Positions 8,143-36,447 of a DNA stretch of 41,048 nucleotides are shown here, in pieces (the first letter of the stretch is position 1; every line of letters begins with the position of its first letter). The notes beneath the pieces are model-generated. The model was not told the DNA's origin, ran no database searches, and was given only the letters and a program-made list of their open reading frames with translations. The stretch is taken from contig JACNLO010000036.1 in NCBI GenBank assembly GCA_014381555.1, positions 1 through 41,048 on the forward strand. Reading direction: 5' to 3'. The position numbers and the translations under genes were made by a program. The DNA is from Planctomycetota bacterium (GTDB lineage Bacteria > Planctomycetota > Phycisphaerae > Phycisphaerales > SM1A02).

Positions 8143-10260
8143 ATGAGAGTTGACCATCAGGCCTGCCAGAGGGCGGCGACAACTGCTTTAACAGGGCTTA
8201 TTTTACAGCTTTTAATCGCGACGACCCTGCTTGTCTTCGGGCTATTTTCTGACAGTTCGGCTTTTGTCTTTGCCTCATTATTTGCCTGGGTTGGAATTCT
8301 GGTTTGGCTTGGTCTCATAATTCTTTTCTATCAAGAAAAGATGAAACTTCTTGAGGAACTAGAAGAATCAGAATTAGTAGGTGATGAACACGCAACAATG
8401 TTTGAAAGTTCTGGAGATGAAATTCGTCCAGCAGCTTCAAGATTGAAATTAATCCATCGCTGGGTCATGCCAGCTTTCAGTTTGTTCACCGCTTGCTCGC
8501 TCATTCTTGTAAGCGTGCTTGTGCTAAAACATCTAGGCAGGCTACTGCACCAGGATGATTCGCTCCAAACTTTTTTGCAGCACACTAAACACGTTGGCTG
8601 GGCGCTTGCGGTGTCGATGGCATTCGCATTGACGAGTTTCATTTATTCTAGATTTATAGCTGGAATGTCTAGAGTCTCAGTCTGGACTAATTTACGCGGA
8701 GGCTCTGCGTGGATGGTTGGCAATACTGTCGTGTTGTTTGCATTGTCTGTTGGATTGTTGTTTAGATTTTTTGATAACGAAGAAGTCCTTCTAGCGGTCA
8801 CTTGGGGCATCCCAATTTTCATGCTTGCAGTTGCAGCAGAAATTTTAATAAACTTTATTCTTAATTTATATCGACCACGATTACACGGCGAATCGCCTCG
8901 TCCCGCATTTGATTCAAAAACATTAAGTTTGTTTGCTTCTCCAGACTCACTCGTACGATCTATAAACGAAGCTATTAATTATCAGTTTGGATTTGATATT
9001 ACAAGTTCTTGGGGTTACCAACTTTTTCTTCGATCTGTCATCTGGCTTATTGGACTAGGCGTATTTGTACTTTTCGCCATGAGCACTATAGTGATTGTCG
9101 AGCCAACGCAGCAAGCGGTTCGAGTACGACAAGGAGCTATAATTGGAGAGGTTCATAATCCTGGGCCAATGTTCAAGTTGCCGTGGCCTCTTGAAGTATC
9201 AATTGTAGAAGATGTTACTCATATTCGTACGCTTCCTTTGACCTTTACTTGGAAGAAAGATCGTCCCGTTATTCTTTGGACTGATGACTATAACAATCAT
9301 GCATTGGTAAAACCAACCCCATTTATTGTTAACGATTCTCAAGGAACAACAGAATCAATTAGTGATGATTTACTCTCGCTTGTTGACATTCGTTCGGTGT
9401 TGCAATACCGAATCGCAAAGGATGGCTTGATGGATTGGTTGCTCTTTGGATCAGACGAGGTCCATCGGCGTTCTCGTATAACCTATCGAGAAATGGCGAT
9501 TCTTGCGATAAGTCAAGATACTCTGACTCAAATGTTTCAAAACCTGCAACTTGACGAAGTCTTAGGGACAGACAGAAGCAAGCTCTCATCGATAGCTAAG
9601 GAAAGACTTCAGGCATCTTTGGATAAACAACATAGTGGAATTGAAGTAATATCAGTAGACCTCCCTCTAATTTCTCCAGCAGGAAAATCAGCACAAAGCT
9701 TCGAGGAATTATCAGTCGCAAAACAAGGAGAAGCAAGACTTATCTCCGCTGCGACTGGGCATGCTCAATCGTTACTCACACGAACAGTTGGCGACCCTGC
9801 TCTTGTTGATGATACTGTCCAAGCTGTGAAACGATATAACAACGCACGCGATGAATGGGATGAAGTTAGAAGGAATGATGCTTCAAGTGCTCAAAGCATC
9901 GCAACCGCAAAAGAGATCATGATGCAATCAGAGAGTCACGCGCTTGCTCTTGTCGAAAATGGAAATGGTCGAGCAGCAGCACAAATTCGAAGTGCAAAAG
10001 TAGAGCGCTGGACAACACTAATGGATACATGGGCTAAATCAAGCCGTGTTAGGGGCCAAATGGAAGCGTACAAATCTGCTCCGAAACTGTATATGCAACG
10101 CATGTACATGTCAGTCCTAGCACGAAAGCTGCCGAATATCCGTAAATATGTAACTGGAATTGACCCGTCTCGACTTAGTGTAGACGTTGAACTTCGCGAA
10201 ATTAACCCACTTTTGAACTTTGCAGACACTCTAGAAAACAACGAAGAAGGAGCTCAGTAA
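8143..10260 (+). CDS. SPFH/Band 7 (HflK-like) protein with seven-span N-terminal membrane domain
   Basis: Hydrophobic spans lie near residues 13-35, 40-63, 107-129, 150-170, 189-208, 216-241 and 297-318. The last leads straight into an SPFH domain (VEPTQQAVRVRQGAIIGEVHNPGP, about 318-540), followed by a helical, Ala/Glu/Arg-rich region (about 540-650) typical of HflK/stomatin oligomerisation. Ordinary HflK has one membrane span; this 705-residue form adds six. HflK/HflC form membrane cages that modulate the FtsH protease in E. coli; whether that holds here is unknown. It is first of six closely packed genes. The next gene starts 1 nt after its stop, with an AAGGAG SD inside its own 3' end. 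Confidence 0.85.
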   Translation: MRVDHQACQRAATTALTGLILQLLIATTLLVFGLFSDSSAFVFASLFAWVGILVWLGLIILFYQEKMKLLEELEESELVGDEHATMFESSGDEIRPAASRLKLIHRWVMPAFSLFTACSLILVSVLVLKHLGRLLHQDDSLQTFLQHTKHVGWALAVSMAFALTSFIYSRFIAGMSRVSVWTNLRGGSAWMVGNTVVLFALSVGLLFRFFDNEEVLLAVTWGIPIFMLAVAAEILINFILNLYRPRLHGESPRPAFDSKTLSLFASPDSLVRSINEAINYQFGFDITSSWGYQLFLRSVIWLIGLGVFVLFAMSTIVIVEPTQQAVRVRQGAIIGEVHNPGPMFKLPWPLEVSIVEDVTHIRTLPLTFTWKKDRPVILWTDDYNNHALVKPTPFIVNDSQGTTESISDDLLSLVDIRSVLQYRIAKDGLMDWLLFGSDEVHRRSRITYREMAILAISQDTLTQMFQNLQLDEVLGTDRSKLSSIAKERLQASLDKQHSGIEVISVDLPLISPAGKSAQSFEELSVAKQGEARLISAATGHAQSLLTRTVGDPALVDDTVQAVKRYNNARDEWDEVRRNDASSAQSIATAKEIMMQSESHALALVENGNGRAAAQIRSAKVERWTTLMDTWAKSSRVRGQMEAYKSAPKLYMQRMYMSVLARKLPNIRKYVTGIDPSRLSVDVELREINPLLNFADTLENNEEGAQ

Positions 10261-10261
10261 C

Positions 10262-11188
10262 ATGAGGAAGCCACTCGTAATAGCCGCTGGATTTGCAATC
10301 CTATTTATCTTACTTTTGTTCAGCATGACATACACAGTCTCTTTTCATGAAGTAGGTATTCACAGTAGATTTGGTGAAACTTCTGAGAAAAGTATTGTTC
10401 GCGAACCCGGTCTTCACGTAAGGCTCCCGTTCTTCGCAGACTCGGTTGCAATTCTTGACACTCGATTGAAGATTCATCAGTCACCTCTTGAGATGTTGCA
10501 GACATCAGATGGCCAACAAATTGTTGTCAAAGCGTACTTGCTCTGGCAAGTTGACAGCGAAGGAAGTTCACCGCTCAACTTTTATCGAGCTTATGGCAAT
10601 ACTGATAGTGCAAAGAACGCAATCGACGGACAGTTTAGAGATGCCTTAACTGTTCTAAGCTCCTTTGGATTCGATGAGCTTACTGGTGAAACGAATCAAC
10701 TTGTAAAAGCAGAGAATGCGATTTTGCAGAAGTTAAATTTGCTAAAAGAAACAGGAATTATTCCGGTCTCGGTGGGTATAAACCGTCTGCTCCTTCCGCC
10801 AAAAACTACAACAGCAGTTCTTCAGCGTATGCAAGCCCGAAGAGATACTCTCGCAGAACAGCGTCGAGCAAAGGGGACTGCTGATGCTGAAGCTATTCGT
10901 GCAGAAGCAAGAGCGAAGCACGACAAAATTATGGCGTTCGCTTCTCAAAGAGCAGAAGATATTCGTGCAGAAGGTGAAGTTCAGGCAGCTGAGTACTTAA
11001 AGGAAATGGGCAAGGATGAAGATCTTGCAATCTTCCTCGCTTGGCTAGATGCTGTTGAAACTGCACTCTCCAAAAATACTACCCTCGTCCTTGAATCGGA
11101 TGTTGCACCATGGCACTTACTTGAGATTAACAAATCGGTTTCATCAGGGATCCCTCAACCTAATTCCAAAGGCAAGGGTAGTGAATGA
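10262..11188 (+). CDS. SPFH/Band 7 protein, HflC-like
   Basis: A 308-residue protein with one N-terminal span (about 5-25), then an SPFH domain beginning YTVSFHEVGIHSRFGE and containing PGLHVRLPFFADSVAILDTR, a close match to HflC layout. Residues about 190-250 are an Arg/Ala/Glu-rich helix (QARRDTLAEQRRAKGTADAEAI) and a conserved-looking C-terminal segment follows. The protein should sit in the inner membrane with the SPFH domain outside the cytoplasm, as HflC does. The ATG has AAGGAG (10247-10252) upstream. Its stop overlaps the next start (ATGA), suggesting translational coupling and fixed stoichiometry with the third SPFH protein. Confidence 0.88.
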   Translation: MRKPLVIAAGFAILFILLLFSMTYTVSFHEVGIHSRFGETSEKSIVREPGLHVRLPFFADSVAILDTRLKIHQSPLEMLQTSDGQQIVVKAYLLWQVDSEGSSPLNFYRAYGNTDSAKNAIDGQFRDALTVLSSFGFDELTGETNQLVKAENAILQKLNLLKETGIIPVSVGINRLLLPPKTTTAVLQRMQARRDTLAEQRRAKGTADAEAIRAEARAKHDKIMAFASQRAEDIRAEGEVQAAEYLKEMGKDEDLAIFLAWLDAVETALSKNTTLVLESDVAPWHLLEINKSVSSGIPQPNSKGKGSE

Positions 11189-12594
11189 CTGATCAACAAA
11201 ATAATTCTGAACACGAGAAACGTAGAGAAGCATCTGCGAAATTTGTAATTCAAAACGTAGAAGCGGATTCTTCTCTTGATTTAAGGGATGCGATGGAAAC
11301 AGCCCATCGCTCCTTGGCAGATTCATTACGACTTAGTTTTCGCGCTTTGCAATTTGTCATGATTATTCTCGTTGTTCTTTATTTAATTTCAGGATTTAGA
11401 ACAGTAGAAGATTCCCAAACAGGGGTAAGCACTTTCTTTGGTGCAATTGTAGAGAACGAAGGATTATCTCCTGGTCTTCAATTAAACTGGCCACCCCCAA
11501 TTGGCGGTTTTGAAATTTATCAAGCTCAAAACCGTGAATCTGATATTGGCGGTGTTTTTAAGCCATTAGTCGATGCAAGATTGAGTCCAGACCAACGAAT
11601 TAGCAAAGCCAGAGCGAGTGATGGCCTTATACCTGGGCGAGATGGTTCTTTGCTTACTGGTGATGGAGACTTAGCACATATCGAAGTTGAAGCAGAATGG
11701 GAAATCATAGATCCGATTCAATACGCCACACAATTGCCAGACGACTTTGGGGATGAAATTGTTACTGCTGTTCTTGAAAACTCTATGGTACACATTGTGA
11801 GTCAACTTACTTTGGAAGACCTTCTTGATCAGCCGATTGAAGAACTCAGGTCACTTATACAAATAGAGGCACAAAGTTCGATTACTAAGCTTAATTGCGG
11901 AATACGCATTTCAGATGTTTCTATTCCAAGCGAGCCGGAACCACCCCTGTATATTCAACGTTCATACGAAGCATTTGATAGCGCACGAATTATTGCGGAG
12001 ACGAATGTTGAACGTGCAATTTCAGAAGCGCATGAAACGCTTATTGAAGCCGCTGGCAGTAAATATGATGTTCTGCTTGATTTAATTAATGAATACGAAC
12101 AGGCTGCAGAAACAAATGACGAAACTGTTAAGCGCAATTCTTTATCACAAATTACTTCAATGCTTCATGCTGATAATATTTCAGGAAAAGTTGCAAAAAG
12201 AATTGCTGCAGCGCAAGGATATCGCGCTCAAATTGAAACCACGCTTGGGCAAGACTTTAAACGCTTCCAAAGTTTATTGCCAACTTACCGCGAGCATCCT
12301 GAATTAGTTATTCGTAGTAGATGGCTTGAAATGTATGCCGCTGTTCTTGGCAATGCAGACGCAGAAACTTTTTTCGTTCCTGAATTTGTACAATCAATCA
12401 AACTCGGTATCTCTGGATCAGATTCAATTGCTCAGCTTCGACATAGGAACGCTTTGAAAATGAAAGAAGCAGAGACCCTTCTTGAGGGAGTAATGTTAAA
12501 CCCTTGGATTTTGCGAGCACGTGAAATTGATTTAGAAGGTCCTTCTAGAGAACTTTCAATATCAAGTGGCGTAGTACAAGGACGACAGAAATAG
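11185..12594 (+). CDS. SPFH/Band 7 protein, HflK-like (third paralogue)
   Basis: A 469-residue protein. About 45 polar residues precede a single span (about 52-70, ALQFVMIILVVLYLISGF), then an SPFH domain starting FRTVEDSQTGVSTFFGAIVE. It includes the HflK-type hallmark LLTGDGDLAHIEVEAEWEIIDP. The C-terminal half is helical and acidic (NVERAISEAHETLIEAAG onward), longer than in E. coli HflK. It overlaps the HflC-like gene by 4 bases (ATGA), and the ABC ATPase gene starts 12 nt downstream. Sequence supports membership of the HflK/HflC cage family; the protease or other partner is not encoded nearby. Confidence 0.85.
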   Translation: MTDQQNNSEHEKRREASAKFVIQNVEADSSLDLRDAMETAHRSLADSLRLSFRALQFVMIILVVLYLISGFRTVEDSQTGVSTFFGAIVENEGLSPGLQLNWPPPIGGFEIYQAQNRESDIGGVFKPLVDARLSPDQRISKARASDGLIPGRDGSLLTGDGDLAHIEVEAEWEIIDPIQYATQLPDDFGDEIVTAVLENSMVHIVSQLTLEDLLDQPIEELRSLIQIEAQSSITKLNCGIRISDVSIPSEPEPPLYIQRSYEAFDSARIIAETNVERAISEAHETLIEAAGSKYDVLLDLINEYEQAAETNDETVKRNSLSQITSMLHADNISGKVAKRIAAAQGYRAQIETTLGQDFKRFQSLLPTYREHPELVIRSRWLEMYAAVLGNADAETFFVPEFVQSIKLGISGSDSIAQLRHRNALKMKEAETLLEGVMLNPWILRAREIDLEGPSRELSISSGVVQGRQK

Positions 12595-34639: not shown

Positions 34640-35161
34640 ATGTTCAAACTTTGTACAACAATAGGGCTATTCATAGTTGTACTCTCAGCAATGGGGTGTA
34701 ACCAGCAAACTCGTCCGTATAGGTATAGGAGCGAATTCAGAGTCGCCCCAGTCCTTAATGTTAATAATCCACAATGGGTACGTGGACCTGTTCCATCAGC
34801 ATACTTGCTTGGTAGAAGCCCAAATGAGGGTAACTACAATTATTACAATTCTGGCACTTGGGAAGATACTCGGTATCCAAGGTATAACGACCAGTACAGA
34901 GGTGCTGAAGGTAGATACTACGCTTGGGATCCTGACTACTACGATGAATCTCACTCAGCCGAAAGAGTCACAGTTGGCCGCAGAGAACTCGAACTCTCAA
35001 GGCGGATGGAAGTCGAAGATGATAATCGCAGAATAATTCTTCAGCGTCATGAAGACGAAAGAGCAACAGCCCGCGAAAAGGATATTGACGCGGTCACTCG
35101 AATAGTTGAAATACAGACAAGACGAGCAGTTCGTCCTGGTCGAACATATACAGTAGAGTAG
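34640..35161 (+). CDS. Putative lipoprotein, Tyr/Arg-rich, function unknown
   Basis: A 173-residue protein. A frame opening at 34568 exists, but the ATG at 34640 has AGGAGA (34628-34633) and begins a lipoprotein signal (FKLCTTIGLFIVVLSAMGC, with Cys at about residue 20), so I choose it. The mature part is rich in Tyr, Arg, Asn and Pro (NYNYYNSGTWEDTRYPRY), then a strongly charged helical stretch (VGRRELELSRRMEVEDDNRR). No domain recognised. It is first of three same-strand lipoprotein genes, followed 39 nt later by the FlgO-domain gene. Confidence 0.7.
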   Translation: MFKLCTTIGLFIVVLSAMGCNQQTRPYRYRSEFRVAPVLNVNNPQWVRGPVPSAYLLGRSPNEGNYNYYNSGTWEDTRYPRYNDQYRGAEGRYYAWDPDYYDESHSAERVTVGRRELELSRRMEVEDDNRRIILQRHEDERATAREKDIDAVTRIVEIQTRRAVRPGRTYTVE

Positions 35162-35200
35162 AAATACAGATTGATGTACCTTAATTCTAGGAAAAACATA

Positions 35201-35902
35201 ATGAATAAGAGTTTGTTACTAATTGGAACTGCCGTGCTTGCTTCTAGCGTAATTGGATGTGAAGGCTGGAATCACAGCAAAAGAATTCACTGGGAACAAG
35301 GCACCCCAGGGGCTGCTCACTGGAAGGTGAACAATGACCGTGATGCTCAAGATCACATCATGGAGTTGGACGACACCCCAACTTACTTACCTACCTTCGA
35401 TGCGAATTATGAAAAGTCTGCGTACAACGCTGTCAGCCATATGCTTTCAACAGCACACCCACCTGCAGGGTTCTTCGAGGTGTTTAATCCCGATCGTCCA
35501 GTCCTTTACTCGACAACTGTAGATTTAAATGACTATTCAAACACAACAAACTTTGGCAGATTGCATGCCGAACTCTTTTCGGCTGCTCTGATTCAACACT
35601 GGCAAAATGATTTAGTGAAGATGACGTTAAGGCAAAGTTCAATTCCAATTATCCCTCAAGAAGGTGAATTCCTGTTATCTAGGGATATTCGCGAATTAAC
35701 TTCAGACTACAACGCAGGGGCTGTGCTGGTTAGTACCTATTCCGTTGCTCCTGACAAGGTTTATTTGAACCTTCAACTTATCAATGTAGATTTCAACACC
35801 GTTGTTGCAGCAGTGAGTTACAGCATACCTCTTGGACCTAGAACTATTGGCATGTTAGAGAATGTTGAAATTCCTGCACATGCAGGGAGTTTTCTACAAT
35901 GA
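35201..35902 (+). CDS. FlgO-domain outer-membrane lipoprotein
   Basis: A 233-residue protein. The start at 35201 (AGGA about 8 nt upstream) yields a lipoprotein signal MNKSLLLIGTAVLASSVIGC. Residues about 60-225 match the FlgO pattern: NYEKSAYNAVSHMLSTAHPP, STTVDLNDYSNTTNFGRLHA, GEFLLSRDIRELTSDYNAGA and STYSVAPDKVYLNLQLINVD. FlgO was first described as an outer-membrane lipoprotein affecting Vibrio flagella, but the domain is also found in genomes and loci without flagella. No flagellar gene is nearby. It overlaps the next lipoprotein gene by 4 bases (ATGA). Confidence 0.8.
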   Translation: MNKSLLLIGTAVLASSVIGCEGWNHSKRIHWEQGTPGAAHWKVNNDRDAQDHIMELDDTPTYLPTFDANYEKSAYNAVSHMLSTAHPPAGFFEVFNPDRPVLYSTTVDLNDYSNTTNFGRLHAELFSAALIQHWQNDLVKMTLRQSSIPIIPQEGEFLLSRDIRELTSDYNAGAVLVSTYSVAPDKVYLNLQLINVDFNTVVAAVSYSIPLGPRTIGMLENVEIPAHAGSFLQ

Positions 35903-36396
35903 AACTGGTTCTTTTACTGCTTCTGACCACATCACTTTCCATTGCGGGGTGTACTAAACAAACTACCGCACGATTAGGCAACCCTATGTATTTGCCTGAT
36001 AATTGGCTTACCGTAAAGGCGACAGCTTGGCAATTTAGGGAACTTCCTGAACAAAGTCAAAATGATCTTATTAATTTACGAGCCAAGTTAGTTGAAGAAC
36101 GTAATGGTCGCTACTACTCTTTTTACGGGCATCTTCGTCCAGAAGTTGTAGAAGAGATTAAGGCAACGAAAGAGAGCTTGAATGAAGCCTTTTTTGATTT
36201 GCAATATTCATCTGACGCTATTATGGCCTCAATTACTCCAAATCTCCGTGGGCTTTCAGATACTTACGCTGAAAACGAAGCTGGAATTGCAGTGACTAAT
36301 AATGCGAACTCTCGCATGCTCGATGATGACGCTGTACGGCTCTTATTGCTCGATAAGCCATCACTTTTAAGCACTCATCCTGTAGTAGAAAATTAA
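35899..36396 (+). CDS. Putative lipoprotein, function unknown
   Basis: A 165-residue protein with a textbook lipoprotein signal (MKLVLLLLLTTSLSIAGC, lipobox S-I-A-G-C). The mature part is mostly helical and charged (ELPEQSQNDLINLRAKLVEE, VVEEIKATKESLNEAFFDLQ). No domain recognised. The start overlaps the stop of the FlgO-domain gene, so the two products probably act together in the outer membrane. A strong terminator lies 19 nt after the stop. Confidence 0.75.
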   Translation: MKLVLLLLLTTSLSIAGCTKQTTARLGNPMYLPDNWLTVKATAWQFRELPEQSQNDLINLRAKLVEERNGRYYSFYGHLRPEVVEEIKATKESLNEAFFDLQYSSDAIMASITPNLRGLSDTYAENEAGIAVTNNANSRMLDDDAVRLLLLDKPSLLSTHPVVEN

Positions 36397-36415
36397 CCTT
36401 TTAAACTTTAGATAC

Positions 36416-36447
36416 ACCCGCCCGCAACTCAGTGGGCGGGTTTTTTT
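36416..36447 (+). terminator. Strong intrinsic terminator of the lipoprotein operon
   Basis: A perfect 8-bp stem ACCCGCCC (36416-36423) / GGGCGGGT (36434-36441) with a 10-nt loop is followed by a run of seven T residues. It is the clearest terminator in the window. Confidence 0.92.

What the first reader, a model, noticed from the sequence alone, without database searches (positions are those of the whole stretch)
34640..36447. Three-lipoprotein operon with a FlgO-domain protein and no flagellar genes
Three consecutive lipoprotein signals, a 4-base overlap and a strong terminator define a compact unit. The FlgO domain was described in a flagellar setting, so this looks like an alternative outer-membrane role. 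The two partner proteins are unrecognised.
Basis: partly seen in the sequence, partly recalled or inferred. Interest (0 to 1): 0.52.

Follow-up and report, generated by a model that had tools for sequence, protein, structure and literature searches.

The report
FlgO lipoprotein cassette without a flagellum
A three-gene set of predicted outer-membrane lipoproteins, one from a family known as a flagellar-motor part, is kept under selection by some marine bacteria in which we found no flagellar rod, hook, outer ring or filament genes, so it probably does a different job in the cell envelope.

Summary
Three genes in a row (34640-35161, 35201-35902, 35899-36396) carry lipobox signals, the last two overlap by 4 bases, and a strong terminator follows. 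Protein 2 matches Pfam FlgO (7e-24). Proteins 1 and 3 match no known family significantly. The order P1-FlgO-P3 is conserved in Phycisphaerales: all three genes occur in 7 of 15 FlgO loci found.

'No flagellar genes' is true of the window ORFs scanned but not of the genome, which encodes FlhA, FlhB, FliR, FliP, an apparent FliQ, and a FliF about one third shorter than its relatives'. Yet no rod/hook, L-ring or flagellin match was found in any of 13 genomes of the genus. FlgO is present in 5 of these 13; in three of the five, a fused FlhA-FlhF protein stands where fliPQR-flhB should be. FlgO shows strong amino-acid constraint (pN 0.15-0.20, pS 0.73-0.84).

P1 of relatives may be an SHS2/Lpp20-like lipoprotein (the fold of FlgP) with a Cys-rich insert where FlgP has its ring-forming insert; weakly supported. 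The window's P1 lacks that core. Best reading: a flagellum-independent outer-membrane lipoprotein scaffold.

The parts
34640..35161 (+). P1: lipoprotein, 173 aa; shortened copy of a lipoprotein that has 340-393 aa in genus and family relatives (keeps lipobox, PQWVRGPVP...GRS motif and C-terminal helix; lacks the SHS2-like core and Cys-rich insert)
   Evidence: ORF and AGGAG before the start. BLASTP (two-sequence search, filters off) against the 353-aa relative gives two overlapping matches: residues 93-171 with 270-348, E 2.6e-12, and 2-153 with 3-138, E 2e-9. Alignments pair the PQWV...GRS motif with PDWV...GRS of relatives; the gapped MAFFT run did not.
35201..35902 (+). P2: FlgO-domain lipoprotein, 233 aa
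   Evidence: Pfam PF17680 E 7e-24; only FlgO match in the genome; profile matches solved FlgO-domain chains 9yfg/9yds at E 1.2e-19
35899..36396 (+). P3: lipoprotein, 165 aa, predicted all-helical; no known family; its C-terminal ~55 residues also occur in small stand-alone lipoproteins of relatives
   Evidence: no Pfam/NCBIfam match; conserved after FlgO; model pLDDT 72; mini versions
35899..35902 (+). ATGA overlap joining FlgO stop and P3 start, consistent with translational coupling
   Evidence: sequence; same 4-base overlap in 6 of 7 relatives, 10 bases in the other
36416..36447 (+). intrinsic terminator: 10-pair GC-rich stem (36416-36441) and T run

Best explanation
A cassette of three lipoprotein genes, probably co-transcribed. 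Inferred: all three proteins go to the inner leaflet of the outer membrane (no Asp after the lipid Cys; E. coli sorting rule, recalled). Inferred: the FlgO-domain protein and the possibly SHS2/Lpp20-like P1 assemble into a multimeric ring or patch under the outer membrane, as FlgO and FlgP do around the flagellar L-ring in Vibrio, with helical P3 as a cassette-specific partner. Shown: five of 13 genomes of the genus keep FlgO, under amino-acid constraint, although no rod/hook, L-ring or flagellin match was found in any of the 13. So here the scaffold probably serves outer-membrane/wall organisation or anchoring rather than motility. In the window's own genome P1 has lost its core, so there FlgO and P3 probably carry the function, or the cassette is starting to decay.
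For: FlgO E 7e-24 and 1.2e-19 to solved FlgO-domain chains, on average 58 copies per entry, so probably a ring. Flagellin 0 of 13 genus genomes, FlgH 0 of 13, Flg_bbr_C 0 of 13 against 8 of 8 order-level relatives in the same search; all three families hit flagellated control genomes in the same calls. FlgO in 5 of 13, at the same mazG/trpA-like side (and, where the contig reaches it, asparaginase side) in four of the five; G008's contig shows other flanks. pN 0.15-0.20 against pS 0.73-0.84 in all ten FlgO pairs from the five genomes, G004's gene being partial. FlgO persists in G004, G008 and G012, where the export genes have collapsed into an FlhA-FlhF fusion. In the wider order FlgO is not tied to flagella: 3 of 41 flagellin-positive (one of them a weak match) against 5 of 20 flagellin-negative genomes. 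P1-FlgO-P3 order conserved. P1 relatives: Lpp20 is the top PDB profile match, though at E 0.27; Tip-alpha and HP1454 fill the top four rows by VIA-align (Z 5.3-6.0). A close fold relative can be non-flagellar: an H. pylori mutant without Lpp20 (HP1456) had normal flagella, motility and motor structure (PMC11756786, passages).
Against: FlgO is patchy: 8 of 13 genus genomes lack it. All the genus genomes are multi-contig assemblies. The window's own P1 has lost its core and is less constrained. The window genome still keeps an export apparatus, so a link to a stripped flagellar remnant is not excluded in this organism. P1's SHS2-like assignment rests on a low-confidence model (pLDDT 55), and no sequence search supports it significantly. 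Ring formation and location are inferred only.
Confidence: 0.55

Rival explanations
1. Relic in decay: the cassette decorated the flagellum of an ancestor, and now lingers while being lost piecemeal, with no present function.
For: Patchy in the genus (5 of 13). The window's P1 lacks its core. In G003 and G006 a mini-P3 without FlgO lies beside the genes that flank the cassette elsewhere. Other flagellar genes are visibly eroding: short FliF, FlhA-FlhF fusion.
Against: FlgO is intact in the four of five genus genomes with the whole gene (the fifth is cut by a contig end) and shows strong amino-acid constraint, although flagellin, L-ring and rod/hook matches are missing from all 13 genomes, so the loss most likely came first.
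Confidence: 0.22
2. Outer-membrane part of a stripped-down flagellar-type secretion device: FliPQR-FlhAB-FliF stays as an exporter, and FlgO/P1/P3 form its outer-membrane collar.
For: The window genome keeps FlhA, FlhB, FliR, FliP, an apparent FliQ, and a short FliF; FlgO and FlgP surround the L-ring in Vibrio (PMC6375700, PMC6504787, passages).
Against: G004, G008 and G012 keep FlgO, but fliPQR-flhB is missing from the usual place and only the cytosolic part of FlhA remains. Of the seven genus genomes with full-length FlhA, five lack FlgO. In the window genome the cassette and the export cluster are on different contigs.
Confidence: 0.13
3. A true flagellar basal-disk cassette: the genomes do have flagella whose rod, hook, L-ring and filament genes were missed in the assemblies or are too divergent for the models.
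For: G014 and G041, with FlgO, do have flagellin and FlgH; the assemblies are fragmented.
Against: Flagellin, FlgH and Flg_bbr_C (five matches in each of 8 order relatives) are missing at once from 13 genomes of 84-98% completeness, and FliF is short or absent in all 13. Of 41 flagellin-positive relatives, 38 lack FlgO.
Confidence: 0.06

Closest known systems
Vibrio FlgO-FlgP(-FlgT) H-ring / basal disk of the polar flagellar motor
   Same: FlgO-domain outer-membrane protein with a lipoprotein partner that is possibly of FlgP's SHS2-like fold
   Different: No rod/hook, L-ring or flagellin match in the genus; FlgT was not looked for; a third, unrelated lipoprotein; P1 of relatives carries a Cys-rich insert and a long C-terminal helix and fails the family search for LPP20
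Campylobacter/Helicobacter FlgP and Lpp20 (SHS2-like fold, InterPro IPR024952 as cited in PMC12222027, passages)
   Same: Model order strand-helix-(insert)-strand-strand-helix; the insertion lies between helix and second strand, as FlgP's ring-forming hairpin does
   Different: Insert is about 105 residues, Cys-rich and modelled with very low confidence, not as a beta-hairpin; no significant sequence match
Arcobacter FlgO-type disk (PMC5758724, passages)
   Same: FlgO homolog without FlgP by homology search
   Different: Arcobacter is flagellated; this genus is not, on the gene content tested
Lysobacter enzymogenes OH11 flagellar export homologs reused in a non-flagellated cell (PMC7277350, title and abstract start seen in search listing only)
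   Same: Flagellar parts kept without a flagellum
   Different: Concerns export proteins and twitching, not FlgO lipoproteins

Membership tests
FlgO (Pfam PF17680) | Score over the curated cut-off | tested here: met
   84.6 bits against 22.6
FlgO (Pfam PF17680) | Sequence relationship to solved FlgO-domain proteins | tested here: met
   9yfg, 9yds at E 1.2e-19 over profile positions 73-196
Flagellar H-ring / basal-disk FlgO (function) | Genome encodes rod, hook, L-ring and flagellin | tested here: not met
   0 matches in the window genome for PF06429, PF02107, PF00669
Flagellar H-ring / basal-disk FlgO (function) | Gene lies in a flagellar cluster | tested here: not met
   No flagellar family in the other 24 window ORFs scanned
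LPP20 / FlgP (SHS2-like) for P1 | Significant match to the LPP20/FlgP sequence family | tested here: not met
   No LPP20 row in Pfam for window P1 (E up to 1), four relatives (E up to 10) or six spliced cores (E up to 10; HMMER filters drop most matches above 0.1); PDB profile match to 5ok8 only E 0.27, and absent with spliced cores
LPP20 / FlgP (SHS2-like) for P1 | SHS2-like fold | tested here: inconclusive
   pLDDT 55 model; Tip-alpha and HP1454 in the top four rows, Z 5.3-6.0, rmsd 4.7-6.0 over 76-116 residues; Foldseek gives nothing below E 0.33
LPP20 / FlgP (SHS2-like) for P1 | Window P1 itself holds the SHS2-like core | tested here: not met
   173 aa; residues between the GRS motif and ~270 of the 353-aa relative have no clear counterpart
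Flagellar-type export apparatus in this genome | FlhA, FlhB, FliP, FliR present | tested here: met
   apparent FliQ by reading
Outer-membrane lipoprotein | Lipobox and no Asp after Cys | tested here: met
   sorting rule recalled from E. coli, not established for planctomycetes

The most novel reading that the evidence does not exclude
A flagellum-independent outer-membrane ring or scaffold built from FlgO-domain and SHS2-like lipoproteins plus a new helical lipoprotein, conserved in several Phycisphaerales lineages, of which flagellar basal disks (Vibrio, Arcobacter, Campylobacter) would be one specialised use. On this reading the disk proteins are a general envelope module that flagella borrowed.
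Probability: 0.4. Interest if true: 0.65.

Novelty: new variant of a known kind. Interest (0 to 1): 0.45.

Why it matters
FlgO and FlgP are known as add-ons to flagellar motors, and their origin is open. A lineage that keeps a FlgO cassette after losing the flagellum gives a natural test of whether the disk proteins have a motor-independent envelope function. The same genus shows stepwise dismantling of the export apparatus, so what is kept and what is dropped can be compared across a dozen close relatives.

Tried and rejected
Rejected: that the genome lacks flagellar genes altogether. Rejected: that FlgO is a chance hit.

Tried without result: Pfam, NCBIfam and PHROGs for P1 and P3 (PHROGs also gave nothing for FlgO). 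Weak rows seen and set aside: for P1 relatives PHF5 (E 0.0095), CxC3 (0.0053) and zinc-finger-like families, all on the Cys-rich insert and under their cut-offs; for window P1 DUF2808 (0.04). Foldseek for the P1 and P3 models gave nothing at E below 0.001; the best P3 match was E 1.3. The profile match of spliced P1 cores to a designed repeat protein (8pjw, E 2.6e-7) is set aside as an artefact of six weak repeats of about 30 residues each; no single stretch passes.

Not done: mobile or phage origin was not searched. FliP, FliQ, FliR and FlhB elsewhere in G004, G008 and G012 were not searched; only the usual place was read. FliG, FliM, FliN, FliI and stators were not searched in any genome. 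FlgI was searched in the window genome only. No FlgO model was folded (two jobs, used on P1 and P3). For the 6 genus genomes lacking FlgO other than G003 and G006, the mazG site was not inspected. Paper searches for FlgO outside flagella and for flagellar loss in Phycisphaerales listed nothing on the point; that rests on listings and on the held library only.

Full report
WHAT IS THERE. The window is one whole contig (C88, 41,048 bases) of a 1.99-Mb, 91-contig genome, 97.7% complete. Named relatives of the locus are mostly Phycisphaerae/Phycisphaerales MAGs, so the organism is very probably a marine Phycisphaerales (inferred). P1 (34640-35161), FlgO (35201-35902) and P3 (35899-36396) lie in one direction, each with a lipobox, the last two overlapping by ATGA, and end at a strong terminator. 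Flanks are a trpA-like gene (by reading) and a MazG-domain gene on one side, and a weak STAS match and an asparaginase on the other. Among the other 24 window ORFs scanned by Pfam no flagellar family appears.

FLGO IS REAL. PF17680 matches residues 98-211 at E 7e-24; it is the only FlgO match in the genome. A 12-row profile finds two solved sequences called 'FlgO domain-containing protein' at E 1.2e-19, on average 58 chains per entry; their source organism was not shown by the tool.

THE CASSETTE IS CONSERVED. A scan of named genomes returned 15 FlgO loci. Profiles (E up to 0.01, ORFs of 60 aa or more) then found P1 upstream in 10 of 15, P3 downstream in 8 of 15, and all three in 7 of 15 (L112, L113, L114, L116, L117, L118, L120). 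The profiles were built partly from these loci; matches not used in building were L116, L117, L119 and L120 for P1, and L116, L117, L120 and L121 for P3. L115 is cut by the contig end inside FlgO. L119 has no P3 match in the ~570 bases left after FlgO, L121 no P1 match, L123 no P3 match. The four loci from other phyla (L122, L124, L125, L126) have neither partner by these profiles. L117 and L120 carry two P1 copies (L120's first is cut by the contig start). The FlgO/P3 overlap is 4 bases in 7 of the 8 loci checked, the window included.

FLAGELLAR GENES. But other main parts are missing. Among 61 genomes (own, 12 more of the genus, 24 more of the family, 24 more of the order), flagellin matches in 41, and in 0 of 13 of the genus. 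FlgH matches in 40, and in 0 of 13 of the genus. In a 21-genome search, rod/hook Flg_bbr_C matches in 8 of 8 order relatives, five matches each, and in 0 of 13 of the genus. FliF in a 41-genome search matches in 33 of 41, and in 8 of 13 of the genus, there always in short frames (375-418 aa against 491-644 aa in the others). FlhA matches in 57 of 61 and in all 13 of the genus, but in six of these only its C-terminal part (G003, G004, G007, G008, G010, G012). In G004, G008 and G012, the three read in full, that part is fused to FlhF, and fliPQR-flhB is missing from the place where G000 and G001 have it. The simplest account is that the genus ancestor had already lost rod, hook, L-ring and filament (inferred).

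FLGO OUTLIVES THE FLAGELLUM. FlgO occurs in G000, G001, G004, G008 and G012 of the genus, and in G014 and G041, which have flagellin and FlgH. A weak eighth match lies in a 742-aa frame of G058 (E 4.4e-4). So 3 of 41 flagellin-positive and 5 of 20 flagellin-negative genomes have it (Fisher p 0.10, and the genomes are not independent). The site beside the MazG and trpA-like genes is shared by the window, G001, G004 (up to the contig end) and G012, with the asparaginase gene on the other side where the contig reaches it. G008's copy sits on a 3.25-kb contig with other flanks, and G008 is reported 6% contaminated, so it is the weakest of the five. G003, G006 and another contig of G008 carry a mini-P3 next to the MazG-like and/or STAS-like gene, without FlgO there. 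All ten FlgO pairs within the genus have pN 0.15-0.20 against pS 0.73-0.84 (synonymous sites saturated, so dN/dS could be computed for one pair only, 0.087; G004's gene is partial). P3 pairs: pN 0.31-0.42 against pS 0.74-0.85. P1 pairs without the window: pN 0.17-0.33 against 0.74-0.79; with the window: 0.48-0.54 against 0.67-0.82, so the window's P1 is less constrained (or partly misaligned). This pattern is not that of a free-drifting relic for FlgO, but P1 of the window may be drifting.

P1. Relatives have 340-393 aa (217 in G041) with an invariant P-x-W-V...G...P...G-R-S motif. In the window copy, BLASTP pairs residues 93-171 with 270-348 of G001's P1, and a second, overlapping match covers the N-terminus; most of what lies between is lost. 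The model of the full-length P1 of L112 (pLDDT 55) shows strand 57-63, helix 99-118, a Cys-rich stretch 120-227 of very low confidence, strands 242-249 and 257-266, then a long helix. VIA-align puts three Tip-alpha entries and HP1454 of Helicobacter in the first four rows (Z 6.0, 5.7, 5.6, 5.3; next row 3.7), in a range where chance matches occur. Foldseek alone gives nothing significant. Lpp20 (5ok8) is the top sequence-profile match but at E 0.27, and disappears with spliced cores. Passages of PMC12222027 state that FlgP has a modified SHS2 fold shared with dodecin, Lpp20 and FlgT, and that ring formation in the family goes with an insertion between the SHS2 helix and the second strand; P1's insert sits at that place. 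[quoted passage not shown] I rate SHS2-like P1 at about 0.6.

P3. All-helical model, confident only for residues about 31-100; no fold match. Its last ~55 residues recur in small lipoproteins of relatives (25 of 61 genomes have some P3 match at E up to 0.001, the window's included; alignment of examples).

READING. In Vibrio, FlgO and FlgP belong to the ring around the L-ring (PMC6375700 and PMC6504787, passages), and flgO mutants still make flagella but swim less well (PMC6504787). In Arcobacter a FlgO homolog probably makes the disk without FlgP (PMC5758724, passages). In H. pylori the SHS2-like lipoprotein Lpp20 (HP1456) is not needed for motility or motor structure (PMC11756786, passages), so such lipoproteins need not be flagellar. 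Here a FlgO cassette stays without the structure it decorates elsewhere, even where the export gate has collapsed. The best reading is a motor-independent outer-membrane scaffold; steps shown are gene content, conservation and constraint; location, assembly and role are inferred. A precedent for reused flagellar parts in a non-flagellated cell is Lysobacter (PMC7277350, search listing only).

Noticed in passing
L096:4499-6907 (-), L097:4905-7403 (-), L100:232-2730 (+): In G012, G004 and G008 one ORF of 802-832 aa joins the cytosolic part of FlhA (44-46% identical to G001 FlhA residues ~228-687) to FlhF (57-59%), in place of fliPQR-flhB-flhA-flhF. It looks constrained (G004/G008 dN/dS 0.14): a possible regulatory remnant of the export gate.
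   Followed up: partly
L002:553-2436 (-) (G000:C69): A 627-aa lipoprotein-like ORF with a FlgI (P-ring) domain (E 6e-17) and weak HEAT repeats, beside an SMC-like gene (by reading); no flagellar neighbour in the 3.7 kb read.
   Followed up: partly
L103:8407-9582 (-) (G000:C63): FliF-domain protein about one third shorter than in flagellated relatives; no other flagellar gene recognised by reading in the 19 kb around it.
   Followed up: partly
window 8143-12594: Three SPFH/Band 7 genes in a row followed by an ABC ATPase gene.
   Followed up: no
L069:4324-4611, L070:4845-5180, L071:3862-4362, L073:3872-4297: A small lipoprotein resembling the end of P3 sits near an anti-sigma-like gene and a transporter-like gene (in L069, L070 and L073 also an rpsA-like gene), by reading.
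   Followed up: partly
L117:5568-7977, L120:2-1738: Two P1 paralogues in tandem before FlgO.
   Followed up: no
L126:7827-9869: Three FlgO-like ORFs in tandem in an Arcobacteraceae MAG.
   Followed up: no
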